Part shown: positions 1 to 43,987 of the stretch, piece by piece
Layout: the number at the start of each line of letters is the position of its first letter
Numbering within the stretch: position 1 is the first letter of the stretch
Assembly: GCA_030605565.1 (NCBI GenBank)
Contig: JAUWIB010000020.1
Location: 1-43,987, forward strand
Direction: 5' to 3'
DNA: 43,987 nucleotides
From: a bacterium
GTDB lineage: Bacteria; Zixibacteria; MSB-5A5; GN15; FEB-12
Notes under the pieces: model-generated
What the model saw: only the letters and a program-made list of their open reading frames with translations
Database searches by the model: none
What the model was told of the DNA's origin: nothing
Position numbers and translations under genes: made by a program

Positions 1-346
1 ATGACCTTTCGCATATCAAGGTTGCCAAGCCTGACGAACTCCCGTCGGGCTATGCCTTCCGTCCGTTCCCCAAGCTGCCAAAATAAACCAATCATCAGAA
101 CAATAAAGTCTCCAATGTCATTTGGCACAAATATAGGCGGGAACCCGCCACCATCGGCAGGTTTGAAGACAAATCTGCCCTACAAGACTTACTCATGCTG
201 GTTTCTCAATCACCACCGATGCTGTTAAGTGAATACAAAAATACACAAAACGAACCCATTTCCCCACCGTGCTTGCCACCCTTCAGCCGGGTGGCCCATC
301 CGCTTGCGGTGGGTTTCCAGAGTCCATGTTCGCTATGTCCTGCGGC
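1..346. other. Gene-free left edge with hairpin repeats
   Basis: I see no convincing gene here; the short open frames have no recognisable protein character. Two hairpins of the dispersed type are visible. One is at 156-179 (GGCAGGTTT, loop, AAATCTGCC), followed on the plus strand by CTAC, which is the GTAGG flank read from the minus strand. The other is at 275-295 (GCCACCC, 7-nt loop, GGGTGGC). This is downstream of the minus-strand barrel gene, so one hairpin might also act as a 3' processing or termination structure, but no T-run follows. Confidence 0.5.
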
Positions 347-2397: not shown

Positions 2398-2493
2398 TTG
2401 TCTTCGAATCTGATTGACAAACTAAAGGCCGAAGGCTGGACGCAAGTGGCAAGCCACTCTTTCGCGCTACGCGCGCTTGAGGGTGGACCATAG
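2398..2493 (+). CDS. Short upstream ORF made by the insertion (31 codons)
   Basis: TTG at 2398 sits 5-6 nt after AGGAGAG, a better ribosome site than that of the following gene. It reads the 16 original residues and then 15 residues encoded by the hairpin insert (VASHSFALRALEGGP), ending in TAG at 2491-2493, three nt before the ATG of the 81-residue protein. I see it as the decapitated original start. If translated it may couple ribosomes to the downstream ATG; a stable product is unlikely. Confidence 0.45.
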   Translation: MSSNLIDKLKAEGWTQVASHSFALRALEGGP

Positions 2494-6874: not shown

Positions 6875-7024
6875 TTCTTGTAGGTCGAAACCAAGCCTAC
6901 CCTGAGCGCAGCCGAAGGGTGGTTTCGACAGTGACAAGCATGTGTGCGCGGCAGGTACCCACATCTGCCGAGAAGAACCCGCCCCGGAAGCGTCGAGTGG
7001 GTTCTTTGCGTAGAACGACATCGT
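6875..7024. repeat. Dispersed hairpins behind the acyl-CoA dehydrogenase gene
   Basis: Right after the stop, GTAGG (6880-6884) opens a hairpin whose arms are GTCGAAACCA (6884-6893) and TGGTTTCGAC (6920-6929), with the motif TGAGCGCAGCCGAAGGGT in the loop. A second hairpin, GGCAGGT, loop, ACATCTGCC, lies at 6950-6969. Both match the dispersed hairpin family of this window. There is no gene here. Confidence 0.6.
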
Positions 7025-7222
7025 TATGAGACCCGGACGAACGGGCTTGTTGAAAAACCCCGAGAGCCGTCATTGCGAGGAGCGAAGACACTCGTGTCGT
7101 AGCGACGCGGCAATCTCAATTCGTTGGCAGACTTGACGTATGAGATTGCCGCGCTCCCTTCGGTCGCTCGCAATGACAACCAAAGGGACTTTATCAACAC
7201 TCCCGAACGTCTGGGCCACCCG
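7025..7222. mobile_element. MITE-like palindromic element, complete copy A
   Basis: The outer ends are inverted: CCGGACGAACGGGCTTGTTGAAAAAC on the left (7030-7057, split over a few mismatches) against TTATCAACACTCCCGAACGTCTGGG on the right. Inside, a second inverted pair is nearly perfect: TCATTGCGAG...GCGGCAATCTCA (7069-7118) against TGAGATTGCCGC...CTCGCAATGAC (7141-7177). It has no coding capacity. Similar copies lie at 19315-19489 (complete) and at 31935-32012 and 37819-37888 (left halves). Boundaries are approximate. Confidence 0.65.
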
Positions 7223-10677: not shown

Positions 10678-10798
10678 CCAACAGTCTACGCGAATATTCG
10701 GGAGGATTTTTGTGGGCGGCAGACGTCCTCGTCTGCCCCAGTATCCACGTGGCGCACGAGGACGTACACCACGCACAACGATACTTGGGAGGCTTGCG
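10678..10798 (+). repeat. Hairpin insertion between porA and porB
   Basis: PorA ends with an ATGA overlap that opens a second frame (10674-10802, beginning MTNSLREYSGG), but this frame is not PorB. Within it lie hairpins GGCAGACG, TCCT, CGTCTGCC (10718-10737) and a GTGG...CCAC structure (10749-10774). The insert is bracketed by two similar ribosome-site stretches, CGGGAGGATTTTTG (10699-10712) and TGGGAGGCTTGCGTTG (10786-10801). The segment 10751-10766 recurs exactly, inverted, at 33897-33912. Confidence 0.65.
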
Positions 10799-16513: not shown

Positions 16514-16834
16514 CGTTTGTCCCAAGGGTTCAGTCTTTCCGAACCAACTGGATTCCGGCTTTCGCCGGAATGACGTTCAAGTATCCCTCACGTGTTTTTA
16601 GATTCGTCCGGCACAACGCACGGTCAAGCCGCCCATAAATGGGTCTCTCTCGCTTCGCGCCTCGTTGCAGTCTGTCTTCCCCGTACAGCCGGGAATCCCT
16701 CCCGCTGCAGCATAGCACACAACCCCACTTTTCCGCTCCCGCCTACTTGCCCCAGTCCGGCCATTTTCCTATATTCCAGCCTATTGGCTGCTCGCGATGA
16801 GCGTGCGCTGACAAACAACGAGAGGAAATACAAT
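16514..16834. other. Repeat-bearing gap before leuB
   Basis: No gene seen. A sharp hairpin ATTCCGGC, TTTC, GCCGGAAT lies at 16552-16571, of a kind common as interspersed repeats in many bacteria. The open frame that runs through this gap into leuB gives low-complexity, non-conserved sequence and is rejected as coding. The ribosome site of leuB (AGAGGAAA) is at 16821-16828. Confidence 0.6.
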
Positions 16835-17929: not shown

Positions 17930-17985
17930 CCGCGTAGGGTGGGGGCTTGTCTCCCACCGGCGGACACAAGGCCCGCCGCTACGCG
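17930..17985 (+). repeat. Two back-to-back dispersed hairpins
   Basis: GTAGG (17935-17939) opens the hairpin GGTGGG, loop, CCCACC (17938-17958), followed at once by GGCGG, loop, CCGCC (17959-17977) and GCTACGCG. It is in the gap between leuB and the thiolase gene and may help end the leuB transcript, though no T-run follows. Confidence 0.55.
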
Positions 17986-31934: not shown

Positions 31935-32012
31935 TGGGTGGCCCGGACGTTCGTCCGGGTTGAAAAACCCCAGAAACCATCATTGCGAGGCCACGCGTCC
32001 TGCGTGGCTGTG
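31935..32012. mobile_element. MITE-like element, left half (copy C)
   Basis: It begins GGGTGGCCCGGACGTTCG, with the perfect hairpin CCCGGACG, TT, CGTCCGGG at 31942-31959, then GTTGAAAAACCCC, TCATTGCGAG and the hairpin CCACGCGTCCTGCGTGG (31991-32007). The right end is missing where the stop codon of the OLD-like gene begins (32016). The element may have supplied that gene's 3' end, and its hairpins could terminate the minus-strand transcript. Confidence 0.6.
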
Positions 32013-33776: not shown

Positions 33777-34270
33777 GCCATCAGGCTTCAGTCAAACAGA
33801 AAAAGTAGATTGATCAAACTTCGCAATGCCAACTCCTCGCCACCTTTGATATCCGCCTGCAGTTTGGCGCGTGGCCGGGACGTTTTGTGGTCGGCGTACG
33901 TCCTCGTGCGCCGACACCAGAGAAGGGCGAGGCCGCGTGGGCCGGACGTTCGCCCCTGGTCTCACAATCGTTCTTCGTGTAGGGCAGGATCCCTGTGATC
34001 CTGCCGAAACGTCTGAGCGGAGTCGAAGGGTGGCGTACCTTGTGGGCGGATACTTAGTGGGCGGCAGATGTCCACATCTGCCGATTCGTCTCATGACACA
34101 CCCCGGCCCACCTTCGGCGGGCCACCCCTCTCAAGAGAGGAACAAATCAGGAGGCCTGTCCTCATGGCGCCGAAAGAACAGCGCAAGGCGCTGTGTCATG
34201 AGCGCAGGGCTCCTGACCTACTGAACTGACCTACTGAACCTGCGGCGTTTTTCCCCGCCGGTTTTATATA
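33777..34270. repeat. Dense cluster of dispersed hairpins
   Basis: No gene is seen in this gap. At least five hairpins are stacked: TCGGCGTACG, TCCT, CGTGCGCCGA (33891-33914); GGCAGGAT, loop, ATCCTGCC (33983-34005) behind GTAGG; GGCAGATGT, CC, ACATCTGCC (34062-34081) behind GTGGGCGG-type flank; CAGCGC, AAG, GCGCTG (34179-34193); GTCATGAG, loop, CTCCTGAC (34195-34217) followed by CTAC. A piece of the MITE end (GGGCCGGACGTTCG, 33940-33953) and the motif TGAGCGGAGTCGAAGGGTGG (34012-34031) are also present. Confidence 0.7.
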
Positions 34271-37604: not shown

Positions 37605-37894
37605 GGGTGGCAAGCCACTCTTTCGCGCTTCGCGCGCTACTGATCTCACCTTGAGCGGAGCCGAAGCATGAGCGAGTTCCACGCTTTTGTCATGCCGGAC
37701 TTGATCCGGCATCCAGGTCTTGATCGGTCGAAACCCCTGCGGTCTCGACTTCTTCGTCAGGAGCACAGGGCTCCTGACCTACAGGACTAACTGGAACAAG
37801 ATCTGTCGACTGTTTCCCGGGTGGCATGGACGTTCGGGCGCGTTGAAGAAGCTCCTTTCCTCGTCATTGCGAGCGACACAGACTCTCAAATAAA
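37605..37894. repeat. Gap of mixed dispersed hairpins and MITE-like left half (copy D)
   Basis: No gene. In order: GTGGCAAGCCAC plus the TTTCGCGC arm (37608-37637), the same unit as the insert at 2446-2475; TGAGCGGAGCCGAAGCA (37653-37669); ATGCCGGA, CTTGA, TCCGGCAT (37692-37712); GGTCGAAACC, loop, GGTCTCGAC (37726-37749); GTCAGGAG, loop, CTCCTGAC followed by CTAC (37756-37782); then GGGTGGCATGGACGTTCGGGCGCGTTGA...TCATTGCGAGCGAC (37819-37877), the left half of the MITE-like element. Confidence 0.65.
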
Positions 37895-43737: not shown

Positions 43738-43987
43738 CAGCAGTTTTCCCCGGCAACCTTGATCTGTTTGTGTACGGCAGATGTCCAGAGGCTGTCCGCT
43801 ACGATAAAAGTCAAGGGTGATTTTGTATGAGGCAGTCCTTTTTCACAATTATCGTTTTGTAGAGTTTCGGATAGGAATTTCGATAGATGTCTTTACAATC
43901 TGCTATTCGTGGTTCTTCCACATGTTACCCATTCGGAAAGTCGGACGTGAAGATATTTTCTGAATGCTCAATCCAAGCTCTGCTCCT
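43738..43987. other. Right edge, no gene seen
   Basis: After the DUF4416 stop there is a degenerate hairpin unit, GTGTACGGCAGATGTCC (43770-43786) with a mutated partner arm, related to the GGCAGATGTCC family, and then AT-richer sequence without a recognisable start, promoter or protein. Confidence 0.4.

What the first reader, a model, noticed from the sequence alone, without database searches (positions are those of the whole stretch)
33891..34223. Family of hairpins with shared flanks but different, self-complementary stems
At least ten intergenic hairpins in this window share a left flank (GTAGG or GTGGGCGG) and size, yet their stems differ and each stem still pairs: GGCAGGAT/ATCCTGCC (33983), GGCAGATGT/ACATCTGCC (34062), GTCAGGAG/CTCCTGAC (37756, and with one change 34195), GGCAGACG/CGTCTGCC (10718), GGTGGG/CCCACC (17938), GTCGAAACCA/TGGTTTCGAC (6884), GGCAGGTTT/AAATCTGCC (156), TCGGCGTACG/CGTGCGCCGA (33891). 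Point mutation alone would break pairing, so either the structure is selected or the elements are written by a mechanism that copies one arm from the other. This goes beyond a normal REP family, where stems are conserved.
Basis: seen in the sequence. Interest (0 to 1): 0.68.

Follow-up and report, generated by a model that had tools for sequence, protein, structure and literature searches.

The report
REP hairpins mobilised by RAYT transposases
The scattered hairpins are ordinary REP elements, tiny sequences copied around the genome by resident 'RAYT' transposases that appear to read the GTAG/GTGG tag, the loop and the folded shape, so the stem letters can differ while both arms still pair.

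Summary
All ten hairpins are in the window, and the genome (a Candidatus Zixiibacteriota MAG) holds hundreds more. In one family selected only by head, first stem bases and loop (GTAG, GKC, YYTGY), 74 of 89 copies pair perfectly across 11 stems. Covariation far exceeds shuffles (0.375 against 0.146, 0/500).

These are GTAG/GTGG-tagged REPs. The genome carries four RAYT transposases; at least three sit among REPs with their own stem. Across 115 RAYT loci from many phyla, tagged hairpins are about 33 times denser next to the gene than 0.5-1.5 kb away, and head type follows RAYT lineage. Alternative complementary stem residues inside REP families are already published (PMC3733652), and published biochemistry explains them: RAYTs read the tag and loop bases but mainly require the stem to be paired (PMC8266576). 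So this does not go beyond a normal REP family.

The 'one arm copied from the other' idea was tested at sites shared with two sister species: 17 one-sided pair changes, 0 compensated. Resident copies decay one arm at a time, so matched stems arise through new copies. New phylum, new member of a known kind.

The parts
33887..33914 (+). REP, GTGG head, stem TCGGCGTACG/CGTGCGCCGA, loop TCCT, one mismatch
33979..34005 (+). REP, GTAG head, stem GGCAGGATC/GATCCTGCC, loop CCTGT
34057..34083 (+). REP, GTGG head, stem GGCAGATGT/ACATCTGCC, loop CC; same stem as the REPs flanking the C93 RAYT
34146..34165 (+). degenerate REP of the GTCAGGAGG type (head lost), facing the 34195 copy as an inverted pair
   Evidence: sequence; family
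34195..34221 (-). REP, GTAG head on minus strand, stem GTCAGGAGC with one mismatch, loop CCTGC
37756..37782 (-). REP, GTAG head on minus strand, stem GTCAGGAGC/GCTCCTGAC, loop CCTGT
10712..10737 (+). REP, GTGG head, stem GGCAGACG/CGTCTGCC, loop TCCT
6880..6929 (+). REP, GTAG head, stem GTCGAAACCA/TGGTTTCGAC with a 26-nt structured loop (complex-loop form)
6944..6969 (+). degenerate REP, GTGC head, GGCAGGT...ACATCTGCC (changes on one arm)
17934..17958 (+). short hairpin GTAG-GGTGGG...CCCACC, 6 bp; weak member
156..183 (-). REP, GTAG head on minus strand, GGCAGATTTG-TCTT-CAAACCTGCC, one mismatch
   Evidence: perfect family copies
31938..31959 (+).

Best explanation
These are REP (repetitive extragenic palindrome) elements of several GTAG/GTGG-tagged families: non-autonomous DNA mobilised as single strands by the RAYT (TnpA-REP, HUH tyrosine) transposases of the same genomes. 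The RAYT reads the tetranucleotide head and loop bases by sequence but mainly requires the stem to be base-paired, so stem pairs may change as long as both arms match. New matched stems arise rarely, in copies that serve as donors such as those beside a RAYT gene, and then spread by copying. Once inserted, a copy is no longer held to the rule and decays one arm at a time. Shown here: covariation, RAYT linkage, head type tracking RAYT lineage, insertion polymorphism, one-sided decay. Inferred from published biochemistry and not tested here: single-strand recognition and cleavage, and selection at the moment of mobilisation.
For: Covariation with fixed head and loop. Four proteins over the NCBIfam cut-off for REP-associated tyrosine transposase. 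REPs beside RAYTs with RAYT-specific stems: GGCAGATGT (C93), GAGTCT (C87), GTCGGAACCC on both sides of the C62/C17 gene, GGCAGGATC/GGCGGGATC (G005 C141), CCCACCGT/CCCACCAT (G006 C109). Tagged hairpins 1.37 per kb within 250 bp of RAYTs against 0.042 per kb at 0.5-1.5 kb; GTAG against GTGG/GTGC heads split by RAYT lineage 17:1 and 1:23. A RAYT unit in G005 where G000 has a lone REP; a REPIN present/absent polymorphism. In-situ changes 17 one-sided, 0 compensated. Literature: PMC3733652 (alternative complementary stem residues), PMC8266576 (tag and loop read by sequence, stem mismatch harmful, stem letters largely replaceable).
Against: No biochemistry exists for RAYTs of this phylum. For several stems (GGCAGGATC, GTCAGGATC, GTCAGGAGC, GTCGAAACC) no RAYT with that stem was found in G000 itself, although the assembly is 96% complete; they may be orphans of lost RAYTs or served in trans. 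How a double change passes through a mismatched state is not shown; stem swaps are about two thirds transversions, so G.T intermediates are not the main route.
Confidence: 0.9

Rival explanations
1. Arm copying: resident hairpins are rewritten by intramolecular template switching or quasipalindrome correction, so that one mutation is copied to the other arm in a single event, and this drives stem diversity.
For: The mechanism is established elsewhere (PMC8794818; quasipalindrome mutations, PMC7202029). Many rare stems are perfectly paired and swaps are not enriched for transitions. One shared site outside the strict filter shows a matched pair difference (L218 against L063:9848).
Against: At 29 orthologous comparisons 17 pair changes were one-sided and none compensated. 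The single exception also has a mismatch and a non-homologous upstream flank, so it looks like exchange with another copy.
Confidence: 0.06
2. In-place selection: each hairpin is kept paired where it sits because the structure works there, for example as a transcription terminator or mRNA stabiliser.
For: Most copies are perfectly paired; arms differ somewhat less between species than flanks do, though detection required one perfect copy. RNA roles for REPs have been proposed (PMC3733652).
Against: Shared copies change one-sidedly and stay mismatched; presence varies between sister species; head, which is unpaired, is as conserved as the stem.
Confidence: 0.03
3. Chance: unrelated hairpins that happen to share short flanks.
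For: The shared flank is only 4-8 nt and some listed copies are weak (17934).
Against: Hundreds of genome-wide copies with exact head and loop and essentially no control matches.
Confidence: 0.01

Closest known systems
GTAG-tagged REP super-family (Di Nocera et al. 2013, PMC3733652), including S. maltophilia SMAG repeats
   Same: GTAG or GTGG tag at one end, 8-10 bp stem directly after it, short loop, hundreds of copies, inverted dimers with mixed stems, sub-families with alternative complementary stem residues
   Different: Host phylum: the paper lists Proteobacteria, Cyanobacteria, Chloroflexi and the PVC group, not Zixiibacteriota. The stem and loop consensus sequences were not compared with its Figure 1, which is not held
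RAYT / REPtron systems (Nunvar et al. 2010 and 2013, PMC2817692, PMC3686654; Corneloup et al. 2021, PMC8266576)
   Same: HUH-type tyrosine transposase gene flanked by REPs; several RAYTs per genome, each with its own REP class; RAYT-linked variants spread while others decay
   Different: Activity not tested here; one RAYT often has two different perfect stems at its two ends (for example L126, L129, L131, L304, L323)
Template-switch maintained hairpins (PMC8794818)
   Same: Perfect stems with matched double substitutions
   Different: Tested at orthologous sites here and not seen in resident copies

Membership tests
REP (GTRG-tagged) | Conserved GT(A/G)G tetranucleotide at the 5' end | tested here: met
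   GTAG and GTGG heads enriched before hairpins; GTGC also frequent, which is a deviation in part of the copies
REP (GTRG-tagged) | 20-40 bp palindrome following the tag | tested here: met
   26-28 nt elements with 8-11 bp stems
REP (GTRG-tagged) | High copy number | tested here: met
   118 and 58 copies of two families in G000; 125 of the GTAG/CYTGY pattern
REP (GTRG-tagged) | Extragenic location | tested here: inconclusive
   Window copies lie in gaps between long frames, but the 10712 copy overlaps a mechanical ORF start and no gene annotation was made genome-wide
REP (GTRG-tagged) | Inverted pairs (REPIN/BIME) | tested here: met
   31 heads-out pairs within 120 bp, one type five times with a 31-nt spacer
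RAYT / REPtron | Transposase of the RAYT family | tested here: met
   Four proteins over the NF047646 cut-off
RAYT / REPtron | Gene flanked by its own REPs | tested here: met
   C93, C87 and C62/C17 in G000; C141 and C225 in G005; C109 in G006. For C7 in G000 only a bulged hairpin is visible by eye
RAYT / REPtron | Single-strand REP cleavage by the transposase | not testable with these tools
   Needs purified protein
Template-switch (arm-copied) hairpins | Matched double changes at orthologous resident copies | tested here: not met
   0 compensated against 17 one-sided; one chimeric exception outside the strict filter

The most novel reading that the evidence does not exclude
Matched stems are written during transposition itself: the excised or copied single strand folds, a mismatch in the folded stem is corrected from one arm, and the corrected copy is inserted. 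One mutation would then give a new perfect stem in one step while resident copies still decay one-sidedly. This would fit the many rare perfect stems and the absence of in-situ compensation.
Probability: 0.08. Interest if true: 0.7.

Novelty: new member of a known kind. Interest (0 to 1): 0.34.

Why it matters
It places RAYT/REP systems in Zixiibacteriota, a phylum for which the library search found no paper linking it to REP or RAYT, with several RAYTs per genome and a RAYT-to-stem map across sister species. That makes this clade a natural test bed for how a single-strand transposase tolerates stem sequence and for where matched stems come from. The orthology result separates two ideas that covariation alone cannot: selection or correction at copying, against constraint on resident copies.

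Tried and rejected
Rfam scan of the window: nothing at gathering threshold. Reverse transcriptase: one RVT_1 gene on C139; nothing linked it to the repeats and it was not pursued. The L012 (C62:48428) Y1_Tnp match has a stop inside and was not among the NF047646 matches listed for G000. Transition/transversion counts do not discriminate well: two thirds transversions is the unbiased expectation. The 'further pair types' measure was not above shuffles (353/500); the evidence rests on the other measures. R-scape and a covariance model were not run; pattern searches with reversed controls and pair counting were used instead.

Full report
WHAT WAS CHECKED. Read on the correct strand they share a GTAG or GTGG head, but they fall into several families. 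Three are imperfect and one (17934) has only six base pairs. Genome-wide, one family gives 118 matches and another 58 within a few mismatches, with no match to the reversed control pattern. Two sister species hold 64 and 71 copies and 164 and 98 copies of the corresponding families.

COVARIATION IS REAL. A search for GTAG-N9-YYTGY-N9, blind to pairing, found 142 sites in 1.44 Mb: 74 paired at 9 of 9 positions, 9 at 8 of 9, and nearly all the rest were background at 0 to 5. Selecting by head, first stem bases and loop only gave 89 sites, 74 perfect, with 11 different stems. On 37 unique sequences the covariation score is 0.375 against 0.146 +/- 0.018 in shuffles (0 of 500), and at most 0.144 when the arms are slid. 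In 13 further relatives 150 listed copies show 21 perfect stems with the same head and loop, paired fraction 0.917 against a permuted mean of 0.523.

WHAT THEY ARE. The nearest named relatives of the C93 RAYT protein are mostly Zixiibacteriota MAGs. The genome encodes four proteins above the curated cut-off for 'REP-associated tyrosine transposase', and relatives at order level have up to 13 matches each. REPs sit next to these genes with different stems: GGCAGATGT (C93), GAGTCT (C87), and GTCGGAACCC at both ends of the gene that appears split between contigs C62 and C17. In sister species, GGCAGGATC and GGCGGGATC flank the C141 gene of G005, and CCCACCGT and CCCACCAT flank the C109 gene of G006. 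For the C7 gene only a bulged GTGG-CCC-type hairpin is visible by eye; the automatic scan did not call it. Over 115 RAYT loci from many phyla, tagged hairpins occur at 1.37 per kb beside the gene and 0.042 per kb at 0.5-1.5 kb. GTAG heads accompany C62/C141-like RAYTs and GTGG/GTGC heads accompany C93-like RAYTs (17:1 and 1:23, p = 1e-9, loci not fully independent).

MOBILITY. The G005 RAYT unit on C141 occupies a site that in G000 holds only a single REP. A REPIN at L064 is absent from G005 at an aligned junction. One REPIN type, GTGG-GGCAGACG facing GTGC-GGCAGACC with a 31-nt spacer, recurs five times, and its two stems are those of the REPs on the right and left of one RAYT in G046 (L323).

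MECHANISM. Published biochemistry (PMC8266576) shows that S. maltophilia TnpA-REP needs the GTAG head for cleavage and a specific loop base. Block replacement of stem letters has modest effects, while a stem mismatch impairs or nearly abolishes cleavage. That is the rule that would give covarying stems with fixed head and loop. PMC3733652 already reports that most GTAG families contain units with alternative complementary stem residues, and PMC3686654 defines REPs by GT(A/G)G plus a palindrome of variable base composition and describes new RAYT-linked variants spreading while old ones decay. The finding is therefore a member of that kind.

THE ARM-COPYING QUESTION. At sites where G000, G005 and G006 share the same REP with alignable flanks, 231 stem pairs were unchanged, 17 changed on one side only and none changed on both sides (the 29 comparisons include three hairpins that are probably inside genes and a few sites seen more than once). 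A compensated change would not have been filtered out. With 17 changes and none compensated, the true share is probably below about 17%. One site outside the filter (L218 against L063:9848) has a matched difference, but also a mismatch and a non-homologous upstream flank, so it looks like exchange with another copy. Resident copies thus decay like ordinary sequence. New matched stems must arise in copies that are being propagated; how the double change arises there is not shown.

A VARIANT WORTH NOTING. The GTCGAAACC family has a complex form in which the loop carries two further small stems (for example GTCGAAACC-CCTGGTCCGAAGGACCGCCGAAGGCG-GGTTTCGAC), and the inner stems also show matched changes (GATCC/GGATC, CCCC/GGGG, TCGC/GCGA). 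Folding gives a three-way junction for several of 18 copies. The window copy at 6880-6929 shares the outer stem and a long structured loop. Complex loops are known in E. coli and Bradyrhizobium REPs (PMC3733652); the terms three-way and cloverleaf do not occur in that paper.

LIMITS. The census covers 43% of the genome, the orthology test a few dozen comparisons, and no biochemistry exists for this phylum. What is new is limited to the host phylum, the RAYT-to-stem map and the orthology test.

Noticed in passing
window 6880-6929; L032:12125, L072:15051, L084:11758, L090:9106 (0-based starts): Complex-loop form of the GTCGAAACC REP: outer stem plus two inner stems, each with matched changes; several copies fold as a three-way junction. 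18 copies in the loci held.
   Followed up: partly
window about 7070-7180, 16542-16570, 31980, 37690-37716, 37860: Other dispersed palindromes coexist: CGTCATTGCGAG (56 in the 1.44 Mb sample), CGTC...GGAATCCA and GTCATGCCGGAC...TCCGGCATCCAG; they resemble the CGTC-tagged REPs of PMC3733652, which have no known transposase.
   Followed up: partly
L058:15752, L044:2869, L053:1331: Chimeric hairpins with the left arm of one REP family and the right arm of another or of a different repeat, suggesting exchange between copies at the loop.
   Followed up: no
window 43770-43786: Half REP: head GTGT and left arm CGGCAGATGTCC without the right arm.
   Followed up: no
window 2399-2445 and 2498-2544; 2446-2477 and 37607-37638: A 47-nt near-exact direct repeat 99 bp apart, and a 32-nt repeat (GTGGCAAGCCACTCTTTCGCGCTWCGCGCGCT) shared by two distant sites.
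   Followed up: no
L014 (C139:951-1613): One reverse transcriptase gene in the genome (RVT_1, E 3e-41, 439 aa open frame), not linked to the repeats by anything seen here.
   Followed up: no
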